Source of the DNA: Ktedonobacterales bacterium
Lineage (GTDB): Bacteria > Chloroflexota > Ktedonobacteria > Ktedonobacterales > DATBGS01
DNA: 59,411 nt
Direction: 5' to 3'
NCBI GenBank assembly: GCA_036557285.1
Contig: DATBHW010000042.1
Coordinates: 1-59,411 of the forward strand
The stretch's first letter is position 1. Every line of letters begins with the position of its first letter. The position numbers and the translations under genes are program-made. This document shows positions 4,327 to 51,137 of this stretch, piece by piece. A model generated the notes under the pieces. That model worked only from the letters and a program-made list of their open reading frames with translations, had not been told where the DNA came from and made no database searches.

Positions 4327-5418
4327 TCAATCCACGATACGTATATGGTCCCCCAGCATCAGTCGCCGGTAGGGGTACTGGCATGGTGGCCCATCGGCAA
4401 TATCAAGCGTACCAGCGGTCAGATCAAAAATGAGTGAAGCGATAGACTCGTCTTGTTGATCGGGTGGCAGATCCGTCTGGACGTGCAAGCAGATAGAATT
4501 GGGCGCGGTGGCATGGTCGCTAAGGATGCTGCGCAACCGGGCTTCGTCAATCGGCGGCTCCTCTGCCAGCAAGGTGGCACGCTGCGAGCGTGCCAGTGTC
4601 TCCGGCTGGTCACGAACATAGCGATCATGCAAGGCAAGCTCTCCATCCAGGCAATGATTGGCATGAGCCAGCACACCGCGCGTGGGCGAGAGCACTTGTC
4701 TCCCGAACGGCGTTGCCTCCACATCGGCCAGATGCCCGCCGCGATCAGCGATCAGGTGATTGCAAGAGGTCTGGCGTTTGGCCGCGCCAATCAGCGCAAT
4801 GGCCTCATCCACTCCATGCGCCTCTTCGAGTACGCGCCGCAAAATGATGTGCATGGGCACAGCAGCCTGGCCGGTATCGAGGTCGGACGTGAGCAGGTTC
4901 ACACACATGGCAAAGCCGCTGGCATTGACGCCGATTTTGCCGACCATTCCGGCTTCGGTCAGCGTCAGCACGTCCGGCCCGTCATCGCGCCGGATGGCCC
5001 ACAGCACCAGCGCGCCCGCCAGCGGTGGCTTCCAATCCCAGTTTTGGGCCAGGCGCATATGTCCGTCGCTGGAAGCCTCAGGCGTGACGCCAAGAGAGGT
5101 GCATTCGCCAAACGGCACACCATACATCAGTTCTGTCCGGCTGTTGATAGCCACGATCTCGCGCAGGTCATGGCCTGCGCCTTCGGCAATGCCGCGCATC
5201 TCCTCCAGCAAATGCGGCGCATACGCTCTGATGAGTGGGATGAAGCGTTCGGCAGTGTTGAGCACTCCGGCGTGGTCCAGCCCGGCGCGCGCCTTGAAAA
5301 GCTCTCGATACGCAGAGACCGTTTGGTTCACACGCTGTGCCTGCGCGCGCCCCAGATGAAGCCCGCGCGCATAGGGCACACCTTCGCTCACGACGAGTGG
5401 AATCTGGCGATCTGGCAT
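4327..5418 (-). CDS. C45-family Ntn hydrolase (isopenicillin-N acyltransferase-like)
   Basis: The 363-residue protein matches the acyl-CoA:6-aminopenicillanate acyltransferase/C45 peptidase family. The likely nucleophile is C106 in VPFGECTSLG. It is followed by RLAQNWDW (about 123-129), the family's substrate-pocket and oxyanion segment. Family members cleave themselves before the cysteine and then hydrolyse or transfer amide-linked acyl groups. The substrate here is unknown, and a penicillin role should not be assumed. The ATG at 5418 follows AAAGGAGAAACACC, and the longer frame lacks support. No signal peptide was seen, so it probably acts in the cytoplasm. The LLM oxidoreductase gene lies 212 bases upstream on the same strand. 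Confidence 0.8.
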   Translation of the reverse strand: MPDRQIPLVVSEGVPYARGLHLGRAQAQRVNQTVSAYRELFKARAGLDHAGVLNTAERFIPLIRAYAPHLLEEMRGIAEGAGHDLREIVAINSRTELMYGVPFGECTSLGVTPEASSDGHMRLAQNWDWKPPLAGALVLWAIRRDDGPDVLTLTEAGMVGKIGVNASGFAMCVNLLTSDLDTGQAAVPMHIILRRVLEEAHGVDEAIALIGAAKRQTSCNHLIADRGGHLADVEATPFGRQVLSPTRGVLAHANHCLDGELALHDRYVRDQPETLARSQRATLLAEEPPIDEARLRSILSDHATAPNSICLHVQTDLPPDQQDESIASLIFDLTAGTLDIADGPPCQYPYRRLMLGDHIRIVD

Positions 5419-5630
5419 GGTGTTTCTCCTTTTCTTTGCTGGTGTGTTGGTTGACCTCTTCTCGATCCGCCGCGCGGGATGGGTTTCCTGCAACGCCAGA
5501 GCCGTACCTCCTGCCCATGCAGGTCTGGTCGAGTTCTCTCGTCCTCTGGCGAACACCAAGAAATCCTCGGCTTCGATGTGGACCTGACCAGTTTGCCCCA
5601 GCCAGCGGCGGAGATACTGTCAGGAACGCG

Positions 5631-6898: not shown

Positions 6899-7618
6899 AT
6901 GAACCAGAGTCGAACGGTGCTGGTGGTAGGGGCGCACTCGGCAGACTTTGTGTGGCGAGCCGCCGGGGTAATCGCCACCGTGACGGCGCGTGGAGGCAAA
7001 GCGAGCGTCGTCGCGCTTTCCTATGGAGAGCGGGGCGAGTCGGGTGACCTGTGGAAAGAACCTGGGCAAACCATCGAACAGGTCAAACGCATCCGCCACG
7101 CAGAAGCCACACGGGCAGCCGAGGTCATTGGAGCGACGTTCCAATGCTTCGATCTGGGCGATTACCCGCTCCAGGTTGATGCACAGGCGATGGCGCGACT
7201 CACCAATCTTATCCGTGAGCTGGCCCCAAACGTGATCATCACTCATACCGAGCGCGATCCGTTCAATCCCGATCACCCGGTCGCCTCTGCGGTCGTCCAG
7301 CGCGCCAGTATTCTTGCCAGTGGGTCAGGAGTAGCCAGCGGCTTTCCCACCATCAAACCTGCCGAATTGTTCCTCTTTGAACCGCACCAACCGGAACACT
7401 GCGGATTCATTCCCACCACCTTCGTTGACATCACCGCCGTATTTTCGCTCAAGCAACAAGCAATGGAGGTCATAGCCGCGCAGAGCTACCTGCATCAGTA
7501 CCAAACCGAGGTCGCAAAGTATCGTGCGAACCATGCTCGCCGCATCTCTGGGCGCACTGATATTCTCTATGCTGAAGCTTTCCAGCGCGTCACTCCCCAG
7601 GTGATAGAGACGCTCTAG
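6899..7618 (+). CDS. galB: PIG-L-fold hydratase, GalB-like (4-oxalomesaconate hydratase)
   Basis: The 239-residue protein has the PIG-L/LmbE fold, but its N-terminal motif is GAHSADFVWRAAG (H13, D16) in place of the usual AHPDDxE of deacetylases. That AHSADFVWR form is the hallmark of GalB, the zinc-dependent 4-oxalomesaconate hydratase of gallate catabolism. A second metal/active-site block, HTERDPFNPDH, covers residues 116-126. GalB adds water to 4-oxalomesaconate to give 4-carboxy-4-hydroxy-2-oxoadipate. The next two genes encode the aldolase that would cleave this product and a ring-cleavage dioxygenase that could make the substrate, which strongly supports the call. A generic deacetylase is the alternative. 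GAAAGGAGCC precedes the start. Confidence 0.78.
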   Translation: MNQSRTVLVVGAHSADFVWRAAGVIATVTARGGKASVVALSYGERGESGDLWKEPGQTIEQVKRIRHAEATRAAEVIGATFQCFDLGDYPLQVDAQAMARLTNLIRELAPNVIITHTERDPFNPDHPVASAVVQRASILASGSGVASGFPTIKPAELFLFEPHQPEHCGFIPTTFVDITAVFSLKQQAMEVIAAQSYLHQYQTEVAKYRANHARRISGRTDILYAEAFQRVTPQVIETL

Positions 7619-7690
7619 CCAGTTCTCGAAAGGAGGAGCAGTTTCCTCCCGATCACTCTCCAGGTGATGGGAGTCCACTGCCAGGATCGC

Positions 7691-8329
7691 ATGAACGAGA
7701 GCGATAGAAACGAATTGGCCCAGCATGGAGTAGCTACCGTCTACGAAGCCGCCGGACGCACCGGGCTTCTTGATATTCCCCTGATGCAACTTCTACCCGG
7801 AAGCCGCGTAGCAGGCGCAGCCCGCACGGTTCGTTGTGGGCAGGGAGATAACTTAATGGTGCATGCGGTGCTGGATCAGGTCCAGCCAGGAGAAGTCCTC
7901 GTCTTGACCATGCCAGAACCGGAACCTGTTGCATTGATCGGAGAATTGCTGGCACGACAAGCCCTGGTGCGCCAGGTAGCTGGCATCCTGGTAGACGCAG
8001 CCGTCCGCGATACGGAGGAGTTGCAAACGCTTGGCTTACCCATCTGGGCACGCTGGATTCGCGTGCGCGGAGCAACCAAAACCAGCGTTGGAACGATCAA
8101 CGAGCCGGTTCTGGTAGGAGGCGCCACCATTGCTCCGGGCGATCTGGTGCTTCTGGATGCCGATGGGGCTGTCGCTCTCCCAGCCACCAGAGCATCCCTC
8201 ATTCTGGAGGCGGCGCGTGAGCGTACGCGCCACGAAGCCGCGCTGCGCGCACAACTGCAAGCGGGGGCACTTACCTACGACCTCTCTGGCCTCCGGGCAG
8301 TCGTCGAGGAGGGTAAGCGGAACTCATAG
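7691..8329 (+). CDS. galC: RraA-type class II aldolase (HMG/CHA aldolase)
   Basis: The 212-residue product belongs to the RraA-like fold shared by 4-hydroxy-4-methyl-2-oxoglutarate/4-carboxy-4-hydroxy-2-oxoadipate aldolases. It shows the conserved (D/E)-X20-R-D motif exactly: E85 in ALIGELLARQ, then R106-D107 in DAAVRDTEEL. R106 would bind substrate and D107 the divalent metal. GVATVYEAAGR near the N-terminus is also typical. The reaction would be CHA to pyruvate plus oxaloacetate. I chose the ATG at 7691, which follows CCAGGATCGC; a GTG at 7664 has no clear site. RraA ribonuclease inhibitors share the fold, but the RD motif and the operon favour the aldolase. Confidence 0.8.
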   Translation: MNESDRNELAQHGVATVYEAAGRTGLLDIPLMQLLPGSRVAGAARTVRCGQGDNLMVHAVLDQVQPGEVLVLTMPEPEPVALIGELLARQALVRQVAGILVDAAVRDTEELQTLGLPIWARWIRVRGATKTSVGTINEPVLVGGATIAPGDLVLLDADGAVALPATRASLILEAARERTRHEAALRAQLQAGALTYDLSGLRAVVEEGKRNS

Positions 8330-8372
8330 GACAGACCGCAGAAATGCCGCGACAACCAGGAAGGAGTATATG

Positions 8373-9407
8373 ATGGCACAACTGGTTTTCGGGATGGGCA
8401 TGTCCCATAGTCCGATGGTGACGCTGCATGATTCCTGGTGGGCAGAGTGGGCAGCTCAGGATTCGACCCTGGCGATCCTGTACGATAGCGAAGGGCAACT
8501 GACGACCTATACGGAACTCGCCGAACGAGCAGGAAACCGCTATGCCCAACAAGCCATTCCCCAACACTGGAAGGAGCAGCACATTGCCGTGCGACGTGCG
8601 GTCGAGAGCCTTGCCAGCGATGTTGCCGCAGCGAAGCTAGATGTCCTCGTTATCGTAGGAGATGATCAGTTGGAACTGTTTACCCTCGCGAATATGCCTG
8701 CGCTCGCCATCTTCTATGGGGACAAGATCAGAAGCGGGCTTTGGACATCGCGCTTTGCTACGTACCAAAGGCAAGGCCAGCCGCCTACCGCCCCGCCGAG
8801 CCTGGAACTCCAACGCGCCGTAGTGGAAAGCTACGCAATGGATACCCATCACGAGTTTGCCAGCGCCCCGGCCTTCGCAAAAGGGTTGCTCGAACGCCTG
8901 ATCGAGTATGGCTTCGATGTAGCGGGACTAGGAGAAATCCCTATGACCGATGAGTCGGCTGGCATCGGGCATGCGTATGGGGCTATCGTCACACAGGTCA
9001 TGAGAGAACAGCCGATTCCTATGGTTCCGGTATTGGTGAATACGTATTTTCCGCCGAACCGGCCAACGCCATCTCGCTGCTATGACCTCGGACTCGCATT
9101 GCGGCGGGCGATTGAGGCCAGCCCGGCTAACCTGCGCGTGGGTATCGCGGCTTCGGGCGGCTTGAGCCATTTCGTCACCGACGAGCGGCTTGATCGCCAT
9201 CTGTTCGCAGCCCTGCGCAAAGGCTCCGAGGACCAGTTGCGTGCTCTCCCTGAGAACCTGCTCAATGCTGGCAGTTCGGAGATTCGCAACTGGATTACTG
9301 TCTCGGCTGCCTGTACACACCTGAAACTGGCCTGGGACGAATACATACCTGTCTACCGCACGTTCGTTGGAACTGGATGTGGGTTGGGCTTTGCCTGCTG
9401 GTCTTGA
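8373..9407 (+). CDS. LigB/DODA-type extradiol ring-cleavage dioxygenase
   Basis: The 344-residue protein is a class III non-haem Fe(II) extradiol dioxygenase of the LigB superfamily. The start MAQLVFGMGMSHSPM places the iron ligand at H12. Further landmarks are DVLVIVGDDQLELF (about residue 90), GHAYGAIVTQ and GIAASGGLSHFVTDERLD near the C-terminal third. Among characterised members it most resembles the DesZ/LigZ type (3-O-methylgallate and related substrates) and gallate dioxygenases, since it is one chain without a separate LigA subunit. It would open a catechol or gallate ring using O2. AAGGAG precedes the paired ATGs at 8370/8373. It ends 56 bases before the convergent regulator at 9464. 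Confidence 0.82.
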   Translation: MAQLVFGMGMSHSPMVTLHDSWWAEWAAQDSTLAILYDSEGQLTTYTELAERAGNRYAQQAIPQHWKEQHIAVRRAVESLASDVAAAKLDVLVIVGDDQLELFTLANMPALAIFYGDKIRSGLWTSRFATYQRQGQPPTAPPSLELQRAVVESYAMDTHHEFASAPAFAKGLLERLIEYGFDVAGLGEIPMTDESAGIGHAYGAIVTQVMREQPIPMVPVLVNTYFPPNRPTPSRCYDLGLALRRAIEASPANLRVGIAASGGLSHFVTDERLDRHLFAALRKGSEDQLRALPENLLNAGSSEIRNWITVSAACTHLKLAWDEYIPVYRTFVGTGCGLGFACWS

Positions 9408-18868: not shown

Positions 18869-19147
18869 AAAACCTCTTCTAATGTGTTGGTCTTTCTGTC
18901 ATTCCGTCTTCCCTGCTCGCTCTCAGCCATTCTCTCGTTGGAAGGTACTTGCGCCGATATTCCTTTCTATACAATAATACCAGCCCCAAAAACAACCATT
19001 AGCAAAGCGCGTGCTGGCTTAGCAGCAGTATGTGTCCCCTGCGCAGCTAATCCTCCTTTCAGAGCGACGACTTCTTTCCATGCTCTTTTGGGCGCGGGTA
19101 CCCACCACCTTTAGGTGTGGGAGGAAGCGCCCCCTCCTTTCACATAG

Positions 19148-19183
19148 TTGACTTTCCACAGAATAGATGGTATTCTGTGGATA
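19148..19183 (+). promoter_or_regulatory. Promoter of tnpB inside an inverted repeat; predicted leaderless start
   Basis: TTGACT (19148-19153) and TATTCT (19171-19176) are separated by exactly 17 bases. The ATG at 19183 begins six bases after the -10 box, so transcription should start at or next to the start codon. Nearly the whole spacer and -10 form the inverted repeat CCACAGAATA (19156-19165)/TATTCTGTGG (19171-19180). No ribosome-binding site is present. Confidence 0.6.
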
Positions 19184-20355
19184 TGAAACACCGACGCGCT
19201 TACAAATATCGCTGCTATCCCACTGAGGAGCAGCGCCATATCCTGGCGCGCACCTTTGGTTGTACGCGCTATGTGTACAACTGGGGTTTGCGGCTGCGTA
19301 CTGACGCCTACTATCAGCGGCATGAGCGCGTCTACTACAGTGACACCAGCGCGGCCATGACCCAATTGCGCAAGCAACCAGAAACCGCGTGGCTCTCTGA
19401 AGTTGCCTATATCCCCTTGCAACAAGCCTTGCGCCATCTGGACAAAGCCTTTCGCAACTTCTTTGAGGGGCGGGCGAAGTACCCGAACTTCAAGAAGAAG
19501 CATGGCCGCCAATCGGCAGAGTACACCACGTCTGCCTTTACCTGGGATGGGGAACAACTGACACTGGCACGCATGAAAGAAGCGTTGCCTATTCGCTGGA
19601 GCCGCCCCTTGCCCAAGGGAGCCAAGCCCAGCACCATCACCGTCACCAAGGATACCACCGGGCGCTACTTTGTCTCCTTCCTGGTAGAAGAGGACTTCAA
19701 GGCGTTGGATGTCACGCCGCAGATGGTCGGCATTGACCTGGGCTTGCACGATACCGTCACGTTGTCCACTGGCGAGAAGGTCGGCAATGAGCAGTTCTTC
19801 AGCCAGGATGAGAAGCAGTTGGCGAAAGCACAGCGTCTCCTGTCTCGTAAGCAGAAAGGCTCCAAGAATCGCATCAAGGCCGCGCTCTCGGTAGCTCGTA
19901 TCCATGCCCGCATCGCAGATCGGCGGCAAGACTTCCTGCACAAACTCACGACACGCTTGATACACGACAACCAAGTGCTGTGTGTCGAGAGCCTGGCAGT
20001 AAAGAATCTGCTGAAGAATCACAGCCTTGCCAAGGCCATCGCTGATGTCGGCTGGGGCGAATTGATACGCCAGTTGCAGTACAAAGCCGCCTGGTATGGG
20101 CGGTCTGTGGTCGCTATCGACAAGTGGTATCCCTCGTCTAAGCGCTGCTACGACTGCGGGCATATCCTAGAGTCCCTTTCACTCGCTGTCCGGCAGTGGA
20201 CCTGCCCGGAATGCGGCATCTCCCATGATCGTGACATCAATGCTGCGCTGAACATTAAAGCTGCCGGGCTGGCAGTATTAGCCTGTGGAGAGATGGTAAG
20301 ACCCGGACGGGCCAAGCCCGTCAAGGCGCGTCTCCGTGAAGCAGGAAGTTCCTAG
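19183..20355 (+). CDS. tnpB: TnpB RNA-guided nuclease (IS200/IS605 OrfB)
   Basis: The 390-residue protein is a complete TnpB. It has an N-terminal helical domain (MKHRRAYKYRCYPTEEQR), the RuvC aspartate in MVGIDLGLHD, the glutamate in VLCVESLAVKNL, a zinc ribbon of two CxxC pairs (CYDCG and CPECG) and the last RuvC aspartate in HDRDINAALNI. All three catalytic positions are intact. TnpB proteins use an omega-RNA, made from the element's right end, to cut DNA next to a short motif and help retain the element. I take the ATG at 19183, with the promoter immediately upstream; the frame stays open to 19117 without a start signal. A second TnpB locus is at 50052-51137. Confidence 0.93.
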   Translation: MKHRRAYKYRCYPTEEQRHILARTFGCTRYVYNWGLRLRTDAYYQRHERVYYSDTSAAMTQLRKQPETAWLSEVAYIPLQQALRHLDKAFRNFFEGRAKYPNFKKKHGRQSAEYTTSAFTWDGEQLTLARMKEALPIRWSRPLPKGAKPSTITVTKDTTGRYFVSFLVEEDFKALDVTPQMVGIDLGLHDTVTLSTGEKVGNEQFFSQDEKQLAKAQRLLSRKQKGSKNRIKAALSVARIHARIADRRQDFLHKLTTRLIHDNQVLCVESLAVKNLLKNHSLAKAIADVGWGELIRQLQYKAAWYGRSVVAIDKWYPSSKRCYDCGHILESLSLAVRQWTCPECGISHDRDINAALNIKAAGLAVLACGEMVRPGRAKPVKARLREAGSS

Positions 20356-35824: not shown

Positions 35825-36988
35825 ATGAGTACGCCACATCAACATCATCATCATCACCACCAGCCAGGCCATCAGCACAACACCTCTGGGCAGCAATCAC
35901 AGAAGGATGACCAGGCGACGGGCTATCTCAGCGGCCAGCGCATCCTGCCACACAGGCTGCGCCCCGACATGACCGTTGCCGAACTGGTGGACAGCGCCTT
36001 TCAAGCCTACAACTCGGCGCGGCTCAACGAAGCTTGCCGCCTCTACGCGGAGCGCATGCTCGACCCACAGCAAGATGTGACCATCGCGCTGACTCTGGCT
36101 GGCGCGCTGACGCCTGCCGGCCTGGGCGGCAGCATCCTGACTTTGATGGAATACGGCTTTATTGACTTCATCGTCAGCACCGGCGCGAACCTCTATCACG
36201 ACATTCATCACGCGCTGGCTTATACCCTCCATCGCGGCAGTTTTGAGCTTGACGACACCGAATTGCAGCGCGAAGGGGTCATTCGCATCTACGACATTCT
36301 CTTCAAGGACGAGGTTCTGCTGGACACCGACGCTTTTCTGCGCGAAACGTTCAGAACCGTGCCTGATCGGCCTATGTCCACCGCCGAGCTTCATTACCAT
36401 ATTGGCCGTCGCCTGCTCGACGTGGGCGTCAAACCCGAATACTCCGTGCTGGCGCAGGCGGCAGCCTGGGACATTCCCATCTACACCTCTTCGCCCGGCG
36501 ATTCATCCATCGGCATGAACCTGGCGCGGCACGCGCTGGATGGCGCGCGCCTGACCATTGACCCGATGCTGGATGTCAACGAAACCACCGCGCTGGTCCT
36601 CAATGCCACGCGCAACGGCGTCATCATCCTGGGCGGCGGTTCCCCCAAAAACTTCTATCTGCAAACCCAGCCGCAGCTTTGGGAAGTGCTGGGCATCAAC
36701 AAAGGCGGCCACGATTACTTTATCCAGATCACCAGCGATGCCCCCCACTGGGGCGGCCTTTCCGGGGCCACCCCTTCAGAAGCCGTCTCCTGGGGGAAGA
36801 TCAAGCCCGATCAACTGCGCGATACCGTCGTCGTCTATGCCGACACCACCCTGGCCTTGCCGGTCCTGGCCGCCTATGCCATCAGCAAAGCAAAGCCGCG
36901 CCCGCGTCGCGGATTGTACGCGCGGCGCGAAGCCTTGATTGAGCAGATGCGAGCCGATTATGAGCAGGGCAAACGCATTCGCCAATAA
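35825..36988 (+). CDS. Deoxyhypusine-synthase-family protein with histidine-rich N-terminus
   Basis: The 387-residue protein is a bacterial member of the deoxyhypusine synthase family. LAGALTPAGLGGSILTLMEY and FIVSTGANLYHDIHHAL form the NAD-binding N-terminal half. GVIILGGGSPKNFYLQTQP, then SGATPSEAVSWGKI, matches the human active-site segment EAVSWGKI. The catalytic lysine (K329 in human) is therefore conserved. The enzyme moves the aminobutyl group of spermidine via an enzyme-imine. Bacterial members may make homospermidine or modify an unknown target, as bacteria lack eIF5A. The first 20 residues are unusual, with HQHHHHHHQPGHQH a native metal-binding-like tail. GATAGAGCAGCGG precedes the ATG. 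Confidence 0.85.
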   Translation: MSTPHQHHHHHHQPGHQHNTSGQQSQKDDQATGYLSGQRILPHRLRPDMTVAELVDSAFQAYNSARLNEACRLYAERMLDPQQDVTIALTLAGALTPAGLGGSILTLMEYGFIDFIVSTGANLYHDIHHALAYTLHRGSFELDDTELQREGVIRIYDILFKDEVLLDTDAFLRETFRTVPDRPMSTAELHYHIGRRLLDVGVKPEYSVLAQAAAWDIPIYTSSPGDSSIGMNLARHALDGARLTIDPMLDVNETTALVLNATRNGVIILGGGSPKNFYLQTQPQLWEVLGINKGGHDYFIQITSDAPHWGGLSGATPSEAVSWGKIKPDQLRDTVVVYADTTLALPVLAAYAISKAKPRPRRGLYARREALIEQMRADYEQGKRIRQ

Positions 36989-49973: not shown

Positions 49974-50095
49974 AGTCTGTTATGCACTTTTGCGCGGACT
50001 CGCTTTTCACCAAGCTTTGCAGCAACCATGTCAAACTGCGATCCATTGCTGTTAGCCCGGACGTGAACTGCCTTCGTAAAAGTGCATAACACGCT
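49974..50095. mobile_element. 122-bp MITE-like insertion with CTAG target duplication
   Basis: The ends AGTCTGTTATGCACTTTTGCG (49974-49994) and the complement of 50075-50095 match at 18 of 21 positions. CTAG occurs on both sides (49970-49973 and 50096-50099). CTAG fits the YTAR target preference and 4-bp duplication of IS5-group transposases, so this is probably a non-autonomous IS5-type derivative. It carries no gene and truncates the tnpB at 50052. Confidence 0.75.
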
Positions 50096-51137
50096 CTAGC
50101 ACCAGGCCACAGGAAGGACAGATATGGGTCCGCATCGAGAGCGACTTTTTGACCCGTTCGCCACAGCTAGAGCAATCCTGTGTGGTGAAGCGCGCCGGGA
50201 CCGCTACGACTAGCACGCCCGCAACCTGCCCATAGTAGCGCACGAGCGAGAGGAACAGCCCCCAACTGGCATCAGAGATACTTTTTGCCAGATGGTGATT
50301 CTTGACCAGATGGGCAATCTTGAGGTCTTCAAAAGCTACCAAGTCGCTAGACTGGATGAGCGCTCTCGCCGTCTTCACCGCGAAATCTTTACGCCGCCTG
50401 TGCACTCTCAGATACCCTTTTGCCAATCGTCGTATGGCCTTCTTGCGGTTCTTGGACCGCTTGATTTTGCGGGAGACGCGCCGATGCAAGCGCTTGAGTT
50501 TGGTTTCAGCCTTCCGCAGATACCCAGGGTTGGCAACGGTGGCCCCGTCGCTATCGGTATAGAAACTCTTCAGCCCAACATCAATGCCCGCCTGTTTGCT
50601 GGTAGGAACATGGGCTATCTTGCGTTCTGCCTGCACGGCAAACTGGACATAAGAGCCATCCGCCCGCTTGACCAGGCGAACCCGCTTGATTTGATTGCTG
50701 GGGAAGGTTTCAATGGAGCGTGTGCCAATCAACCGGAGCGTGCCAATGCCGTGTCCATCGGTGAAGGTGAGCCGCTTGCCATCCGGCTCCAACCGCCAGC
50801 CAGAGGTTTTGTACTCGACACTCCGGTTATCCTTCTGGAAACGGGGATAGCCCTTCTTGCCAGGCTTGTGCTTCTGGCAATTGTCGTAGAAGCGAGCAAT
50901 GGATTGCCAGGCGCGTTCTGCGCTGGCTTGTCGGGCCATCGAATTGAGCCGGGCCACAAAGGGATACTCTTTTGCCAGTTGGGCGCTGTACTGATTCAGG
51001 ACGTAGGCATTCGTGCCCCGCGTGTCCATCCACAGCCCAAGGGCCTTGTTGCGGATGAACTGCGTGGTACGGATGGCCTCGTCAATCGCGGACCGTTGAG
51101 CCTGGTTGGTCCTGAGCTTGTACTCCAGAATCAGCAC
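50052..51137 (-). CDS. tnpB: TnpB, C-terminally truncated by a MITE
   Basis: The 361-residue frame is TnpB from its N-terminal domain through the RuvC aspartate (SKQAGIDVGLKSF), glutamate (LVAFEDLKIAHL) and zinc ribbon (CSSCG and CPSCG). After CPSCGLVLE it runs into the element at 49974-50095, which supplies VMHFYEGSSRPG and the stop. The third RuvC motif DRDxNAALN is lost, so cleavage is unlikely. The right end and omega-RNA region are gone too. The GTG at 51137 has GCGAGGTATCC upstream and lies inside the preceding RHH-like gene. It is not closely similar to the TnpB at 19183. Confidence 0.85.
   Translation of the reverse strand: MLILEYKLRTNQAQRSAIDEAIRTTQFIRNKALGLWMDTRGTNAYVLNQYSAQLAKEYPFVARLNSMARQASAERAWQSIARFYDNCQKHKPGKKGYPRFQKDNRSVEYKTSGWRLEPDGKRLTFTDGHGIGTLRLIGTRSIETFPSNQIKRVRLVKRADGSYVQFAVQAERKIAHVPTSKQAGIDVGLKSFYTDSDGATVANPGYLRKAETKLKRLHRRVSRKIKRSKNRKKAIRRLAKGYLRVHRRRKDFAVKTARALIQSSDLVAFEDLKIAHLVKNHHLAKSISDASWGLFLSLVRYYGQVAGVLVVAVPARFTTQDCSSCGERVKKSLSMRTHICPSCGLVLERVMHFYEGSSRPG

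What the first reader, a model, noticed from the sequence alone, without database searches (positions are those of the whole stretch)
6899..9407. Compact three-gene extradiol cleavage operon for gallate-like aromatics
A GalB-type hydratase (GAHSADFVWR motif), an RraA-fold aldolase with an exact E-X20-RD motif and a LigB-type dioxygenase with iron ligand H12 follow one another on one strand. In Pseudomonas and Sphingobium these steps are spread over larger gal/lig clusters with isomerase, transporter and regulator genes, none of which is seen here. A minimal unit in a probable Chloroflexota background is not something I know to be described. The dioxygenase could act on gallate, 3-O-methylgallate or another trihydroxybenzoate.
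Basis: partly seen in the sequence, partly recalled or inferred. Interest (0 to 1): 0.7.

Follow-up and report, generated by a model that had tools for sequence, protein, structure and literature searches.

The report
Hybrid aromatic-ring-opening mini-operon
A Chloroflexota bacterium carries a three-gene unit that probably opens a plant-derived aromatic acid and turns it into pyruvate and oxaloacetate; two genes come from one known pathway and the ring-opening enzyme from another family, one that has lost a textbook iron-binding histidine.

Summary
In detail: a GalB-like PIG-L hydratase (6899-7618), an HMG/CHA-type RraA aldolase (about 7691-8329) and a LigB-fold extradiol dioxygenase (8373-9407) follow each other on the + strand, with no isomerase, transporter or regulator beside them. 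Hydratase and aldolase belong to the 4-oxalomesaconate branch, which serves protocatechuate 4,5-cleavage as well as gallate. The dioxygenase is not GalA/DesB/LigB-type. It belongs to a large, apparently uncharacterised subfamily whose GDDQxE motif puts Gln99 where LigB has iron ligand His61; H12, H200, H266 and E303 are kept. Its nearest relatives sit in DDVA-type clusters with LigY-like C-C hydrolases; none of 80 relatives has GalB beside it. GalB and RraA trace instead to a Chloroflexota/Thermus cluster with DUF6282 and a type I extradiol dioxygenase. The window is therefore a hybrid: the GalB-RraA pair with the dioxygenase exchanged. No LigY, DUF6282, C23O or GalD homologue was found in the genome, so a substrate whose cleavage gives oxalomesaconate directly (gallate type) is the most economical reading, not a proven one. 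New variant of a known kind; interest 0.5.

The parts
6899..7618 (+). GalB-like hydratase (PIG-L fold, 239 aa), predicted 4-carboxy-2-hydroxymuconate / 4-oxalomesaconate hydratase
   Evidence: 5cgz GalB 207 bits over the full length; AHSADF, GERGES, NxDH, FEPH conserved; 75% to G035 and 66-67% to f46 genomes, beside the same aldolase
7691..8329 (+). RraA-fold pyruvate aldolase (HMG/CHA aldolase type, 212 aa from ATG 7691; ORF opens at GTG 7664)
   Evidence: NF006731 183 bits, cut-off 179; 3noj 1.3e-39; E-X20-RD (E85, R106-D107) and the Asn/His/Lys of the 3noj active site kept in the printed alignment (residue roles from PMC5065237); tree places it with aldolases of GalB loci
8373..9407 (+). 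LigB-fold (class III) extradiol dioxygenase of the GDDQ subfamily, 344 aa
   Evidence: PF02900; AlphaFold model pLDDT 93.6, DesB Z 30.4, LigB Z 29.5; tree nests it among LigY-associated relatives
8406..8408 (+). His12 codon, iron ligand equivalent to LigB His12
   Evidence: invariant in A1 and A2
8658..8675 (+). GDDQLE motif (residues 96-101); Gln99 in the place of iron ligand LigB His61
   Evidence: hmmsearch of A2 against 1b4u_B aligns D-Q with D60-H61; hhalign against Azospirillum LigB gives the same register; counts in 122 sequences
8970..8972 (+). His200 codon (LigB His127 / DesB His124 equivalent)
   Evidence: invariant in A2; MAFFT register with Azospirillum LigB
9168..9170 (+). His266 codon in SGGLSH (LigB His195 equivalent, catalytic base)
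   Evidence: invariant in A2; alignment to 1b4u_B
9279..9281 (+). Glu303 codon in SSEIRNW, third iron ligand equivalent to LigB Glu242
   Evidence: invariant in A2; alignment to 1b4u_B E242

Best explanation
A compact, hybrid meta-cleavage operon. The LigB-fold dioxygenase opens a tri-oxygenated benzoate of the gallate type (gallate, 3-O-methylgallate or a close analogue) beside an oxygen substituent. The ring-opened product is then 4-oxalomesaconate (or a derivative that collapses to it) without a C-C hydrolase, semialdehyde dehydrogenase or lactonase. The GalB-like enzyme hydrates this to 4-carboxy-4-hydroxy-2-oxoadipate and the RraA aldolase splits that into pyruvate and oxaloacetate. By descent, GalB and RraA are an inherited pair from the Chloroflexota/Thermus cluster [DUF6282-GalB-RraA with a type I extradiol enzyme], and the dioxygenase was taken from the LigY-associated (LigZ-like) lineage and now stands where f46 genomes have their type I enzyme. 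Shown here: gene identities, order, conserved and lost residues, two different ancestries, absence of detectable partner genes. Inferred: enzymatic activity, substrate, co-transcription, metal coordination through Gln99.
For: Hydratase and aldolase identity. Pair ancestry: GalB and RraA relatives rank in the same order, G035 75/71%, f46 about 66/65%, Thermus 61/58%, and the RraA tree puts the window with aldolases of GalB loci (100/99; pair with G035 100/96), apart from the aldolases of dioxygenase-family loci. G158 has DUF6282-GalB-RraA-C23O in that order; G035 keeps only a 43-aa DUF6282 match in a 52-aa frame right before GalB. Dioxygenase ancestry: 100/95 with L032, L035, L053 inside a LigY-associated clade. 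G000 has no match to C23O or DUF6282 where the same search rang in G010 and G158, no PrpF/GalD, only 29.6 bits to a LigY-like query and a single PF02900 protein. So only a substrate that needs none of these steps fits the genes present.
Against: No substrate or activity is shown. The dioxygenase family has Gln for the second iron His. It lacks the C-terminal part of DesB that (from memory) reaches into the neighbouring active site; the structural match stops at DesB residue 275. Its kin are associated with C-C hydrolases, not with gallate genes. No gallate-specific gene (transporter, tannase, GalD, regulator) is near. A hydrolase of another fold could stand in for LigY and would have been missed. 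The genome is a draft (97% complete, 3.7% contamination).
Confidence: 0.5

Rival explanations
1. LigZ-type route: the dioxygenase cleaves a 5-substituted protocatechuate (biaryl such as OH-DDVA, or acyl), a C-C hydrolase encoded elsewhere releases 4-carboxy-2-hydroxypenta-2,4-dienoate, the GalB-like enzyme hydrates that to 4-hydroxy-4-methyl-2-oxoglutarate, and the RraA aldolase yields two pyruvates.
For: Nearest dioxygenase relatives stand with LigY-like hydrolases, a LigXa_C Rieske protein, RidA and RraA; amidohydrolases in 36 and RraA in 32 of 49 long loci. RraA aldolases of this type accept HMG (PMC5065237). The alkene hydratase of the SYK-6 DDVA route is listed as not identified in PMC12673573.
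Against: No LigY-like protein in G000 beyond 29.6 bits; no LigXa_C match in G000, though that search had no positive control. GalB and RraA come from an oxalomesaconate lineage, not from DDVA-type clusters.
Confidence: 0.25
2. The dioxygenase-like protein is not an Fe(II) extradiol enzyme: with Gln for the second histidine it uses another metal or another chemistry, and the GalB-RraA pair processes oxalomesaconate-like acids from elsewhere.
For: Q99 is nearly invariant in 62 sequences and no solved structure is closer than the canonical enzymes. MEMO1, with this fold, binds iron while its primary function is reported as unknown (PMC11081632, abstract).
Against: H12, the two other active-site histidines and the Glu ligand are kept throughout; a few members carry His (4) or Glu (2) at the same position, as expected for a residue at a metal site; the family sits with catabolic genes for ring-cleavage products.
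Confidence: 0.15
3. A decaying or chance assembly: the pair is a remnant of a lost protocatechuate 4,5-cleavage cluster, as in G035, and the dioxygenase gene landed beside it without a shared pathway.
For: G035 shows a decayed DUF6282 before the pair and no dioxygenase on its short contig; the GDDQ dioxygenase is found in only one of 47 genomes of the class; no regulator or transporter is adjacent.
Against: All three frames are intact with good ribosome-binding sites, tight spacing and one strand; active-site residues of hydratase and aldolase are conserved.
Confidence: 0.1

Closest known systems
gal cluster of Pseudomonas putida KT2440 (GalA gallate dioxygenase, GalB hydratase, GalC aldolase, GalD tautomerase)
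   Same: GalB-type PIG-L hydratase next to a CHA-type RraA aldolase and a LigB-fold dioxygenase
   Different: Dioxygenase is from another subfamily with Gln99 for the second iron His and no DesB/GalA C-terminal part; no GalD, transporter or regulator
Chloroflexota/Thermus cluster DUF6282-GalB-RraA with a type I catechol 2,3-dioxygenase-like enzyme (Thermus oshimai pTHEOS01, G158, G010)
   Same: Closest relatives of the window's GalB and RraA, same order of the two genes
   Different: DUF6282, GntR, C23O and oxidoreductase are absent; a LigB-fold enzyme follows RraA where f46 genomes have C23O
DDVA pathway of Sphingobium lignivorans SYK-6 (LigXa, LigZ, LigY, HMG aldolase) and the LigY-associated GDDQ clusters
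   Same: Dioxygenase ancestry; clusters combine ring cleavage with an RraA aldolase
   Different: GalB in place of LigY, no Rieske demethylase, no RidA. Whether LigZ itself is a GDDQ protein was not tested (its sequence was not at hand)
LigAB protocatechuate 4,5-dioxygenase (1b4u/1bou)
   Same: Fold (Z 29.5, rmsd 2.3 over 255 residues), H12, H127, H195 and E242 equivalents
   Different: H61 replaced by Gln99; no LigA-like subunit gene; about 20% identity over aligned residues

Membership tests
GalB (4-oxalomesaconate / 4-carboxy-2-hydroxymuconate hydratase) | full-length similarity to GalB well above PIG-L deacetylases | tested here: met
   207 bits to 5cgz against at most 31.7 bits to deacetylase structures; below all BshB/MshB equivalog cut-offs
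GalB (4-oxalomesaconate / 4-carboxy-2-hydroxymuconate hydratase) | AHSADF metal-site motif and downstream E/H motifs of GalB | tested here: met
   AHSADF, GERGES, NxDH, FEPH kept in the 5cgz alignment; A12 H13 A15 D16 E47 D125 H126 E161 at 95% or more in 24 relatives
GalB (4-oxalomesaconate / 4-carboxy-2-hydroxymuconate hydratase) | hydratase activity | not testable with these tools
   needs an assay
HMG/CHA aldolase (RraA fold) | class II aldolase residues (Arg123, Asp124, Asn71, His75, Lys147 of 3noj) | tested here: met
   alignment; residue roles from PMC5065237; R106-D107 at 95% or more in 108 relatives
HMG/CHA aldolase (RraA fold) | NCBIfam equivalog cut-offs | tested here: inconclusive
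   over the cut-off of NF006731 (183 against 179) but under TIGR02798 LigK/PcmE (175.5 against 304.5)
LigB-superfamily class III extradiol dioxygenase | LigB fold | tested here: met
   PF02900; model pLDDT 93.6, DesB Z 30.4, LigB Z 29.5, MhpB 27.6
LigB-superfamily class III extradiol dioxygenase | 2-His-1-Glu iron triad (H12, H61, E242 in LigB) | tested here: not met
   H12 and E303 present, H61 replaced by Gln99
Gallate dioxygenase (GalA/DesB) | gallate dioxygenase equivalog score and the C-terminal LigA-like part of DesB | tested here: not met
   NF009904 gallate dioxygenase 44.8 bits against a cut-off of 412; structural match ends at DesB 275 of 418. Role of the C-terminal part: from memory
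OH-DDVA dioxygenase (LigZ) type | LigZ sequence similarity | not tested
   LigZ sequence was not at hand; only neighbourhood evidence
OH-DDVA dioxygenase (LigZ) type | partner C-C hydrolase LigY | tested here: not met
   no LigY-like gene around the operon; 29.6 bits at best in G000
Protocatechuate 4,5-cleavage cluster with DUF6282 | type I extradiol enzyme and DUF6282 present | tested here: not met
   no match in G000 while the same searches rang in G010 and G158

The most novel reading that the evidence does not exclude
A large, widespread subfamily of LigB-fold ring-cleaving dioxygenases works with a His-Gln-Glu metal site in place of the textbook 2-His-1-carboxylate triad, and this window shows such an enzyme recruited, in exchange for a type I extradiol dioxygenase, into a GalB-aldolase module, giving a three-gene route for gallate-type acids.
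Probability: 0.3. Interest if true: 0.7.

Novelty: new variant of a known kind. Interest (0 to 1): 0.5.

Why it matters
It shows module exchange in aromatic catabolism at gene resolution: a hydratase-aldolase pair with one history and a dioxygenase with another, joined in one compact unit. One purified member with an iron stoichiometry and a substrate panel would test whether a Gln can serve in that facial triad, and would give a function to many proteins now called 'extradiol ring-cleavage dioxygenase' or, on some plasmids, 'protocatechuate 3,4-dioxygenase'.

Tried and rejected
Naringenin fde operon as the model for the dioxygenase clusters: rejected, FdeC is described as glyoxalase-like (PMC11069340). 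LigJ-type hydratase as the identity of the amidohydrolase in those clusters: rejected for the three tested, all score higher to LigY. Remnants of DUF6282, C23O, GntR, RidA or LigY around the operon: none above noise. Same dioxygenase in the class: not found in the other 46 genomes held. GalB beside any of 80 dioxygenase relatives: none. Promoter and terminator scan: no signal above shuffles. PF19301 in G000: empty, but no control rang, so no conclusion. Literature: no paper found on the GDDQ motif, on DUF6282 or on gallate cleavage in Ktedonobacteria; the library is open-access only, so this is weak. The paper on the GalB structure was not held. In one search locus L117 is labelled as a dioxygenase-family locus by my script; it is a GalB locus (G158).

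Full report
1. What is there. On the + strand at 6899-9407 lie three intact genes. The first (6899-7618) matches P. putida GalB, a PIG-L-fold hydratase, over its full length (207 bits; next best, deacetylases, 31.7 bits). The second (ATG 7691, ORF from 7664, to 8329) is an RraA-fold aldolase: over the cut-off of NF006731 CHA aldolase, under that of TIGR02798, with the catalytic Arg-Asp and other pocket residues of 3noj kept. The third starts at 8373, not at the mechanical 8130, and is a 344-aa LigB-fold protein. Gaps of 72 and about 40 nt and clear Shine-Dalgarno sequences fit one transcript; consensus scans give no promoter or terminator above shuffles. Neighbours are unrelated and on the other strand. 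The rest of the window shows no further gene for the same pathway among the ORFs scanned.

2. The dioxygenase is not GalA, DesB or LigB. Its profile aligns to LigB with the iron ligand D60-H61 facing D98-Q99 (hmmsearch; hhalign against Azospirillum LigB; MAFFT). In 122 aligned sequences the position is Gln in 106; four members of the same subfamily have His and two have Glu. H12, H200 (LigB H127), H266 (H195) and E303 (E242) are invariant in a 62-sequence alignment, as are D98 and E101. The AlphaFold model is confident (pLDDT 93.6) and superposes best on DesB (Z 30.4) and LigB (Z 29.5), which are tied, covering only DesB 2-275 of 418. So the fold and most of the active site are those of a class III extradiol dioxygenase, and one of three iron ligands is changed in a conserved way. 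Whether Gln99 binds metal is inference.

3. Where the dioxygenase comes from. Around the best 80, loci longer than 15 kb hold an amidohydrolase in 36 of 49, RraA aldolases in 32, RidA in 22, Rieske proteins in 20, and no GalB in any. Three of the amidohydrolases were tested and score higher to LigY, the C-C hydrolase for the OH-DDVA cleavage product, than to LigJ: 297 against 213 bits, 283 against 191, 381 against 209. The window protein groups at 100/95 with L032, L035 and L053. L032, from a Chloroflexi MAG, has MarR, a LigXa_C Rieske protein, two RraA, RidA, LigY-like and dioxygenase genes: a DDVA-type cluster. L053 has neither a LigY-like gene recognised nor GalB nearby.

4. Where the pair comes from. 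GalB and RraA have the same ranking of relatives: G035 (same order) 75 and 71%, f46 genomes about 66 and 65%, Thermus oshimai 61 and 58%. In f46 and Thermus the pair stands with DUF6282 and a type I catechol 2,3-dioxygenase-like enzyme, in Thermus also with a 4-hydroxybenzoate 3-monooxygenase; this reads as protocatechuate 4,5-cleavage, by inference. The RraA tree separates aldolases of GalB loci (window included, 100/96 and 100/99) from those of dioxygenase-family loci (98/88). G035 keeps a fragment of DUF6282 right before GalB. In G158 the C23O follows RraA, which is the place the LigB-fold gene takes in the window. In G000 neither C23O nor DUF6282 is found by searches that ring in G010 and G158.

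5. How it most likely works. The partner genes that other routes need (LigY, semialdehyde dehydrogenase plus DUF6282, GalD) are not adjacent, and LigY, DUF6282, C23O and PrpF were not found in the genome. A substrate with an oxygen substituent next to the cleaved bond gives the acid directly; this is the chemistry of gallate and, after ester loss, 3-O-methylgallate (established knowledge of these pathways). Hydration by GalB and aldol cleavage by RraA then give pyruvate and oxaloacetate. I put this at 0.5. The LigZ-type route with a hydrolase encoded elsewhere is the main rival (0.25).

6. Comparison and novelty. It works like a gal pathway but its dioxygenase fails membership of GalA/DesB and fails the canonical iron triad. 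It is a new variant of a known kind: a hybrid operon with an exchanged dioxygenase. I found no description of the GDDQ subfamily or of this gene order, within an open-access library only. Limits: draft genome; unnamed taxonomy below phylum; no activity data; LigZ sequence not compared.

Noticed in passing
L007-L015 (genomes G009, G012, G016, G020, G026, G030, G032, G035, G037, same order as the window): A second LigB-fold family (about 286-296 aa, motif ATTHHPFFYR, GSDH) keeps the His that GDDQ proteins lose but has Leu for the catalytic His195 equivalent and Gly for the Glu242 equivalent in my alignment. Function unknown.
   Followed up: partly
L144 3244-3372 (G035:C756): Short remnant of a DUF6282 gene (51% over 43 aa in a 52-aa frame) between GntR and GalB: a decayed intermediate of the ancestral cluster.
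   Followed up: partly
genomes G081, G097, G058 (same phylum): Massive paralogy of the dioxygenase family: 19, 16 and 12 matches per genome.
   Followed up: no
L112 6449-11115 (Thermus oshimai pTHEOS01): Cluster C23O-GntR-DUF6282-GalB-RraA-oxidoreductase beside 4-hydroxybenzoate 3-monooxygenase: suggests that DUF6282 is a pyrone-dicarboxylate hydrolase-like enzyme of a protocatechuate 4,5-route with a type I dioxygenase. DUF6282 had no paper in the library.
   Followed up: partly
window 19117-20355 (+) and 50052-51137 (-): Two TnpB-like (OrfB_IS605 / Cas12f1-like) genes.
   Followed up: no
window 35825-36988 (+): Deoxyhypusine synthase family protein (PF01916, 261 bits) in a bacterium.
   Followed up: no
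window 4327-5559 (-): C45 autoproteolytic acyltransferase/hydrolase (NF040521, 261 bits) next to an LLM-class oxidoreductase.
   Followed up: no
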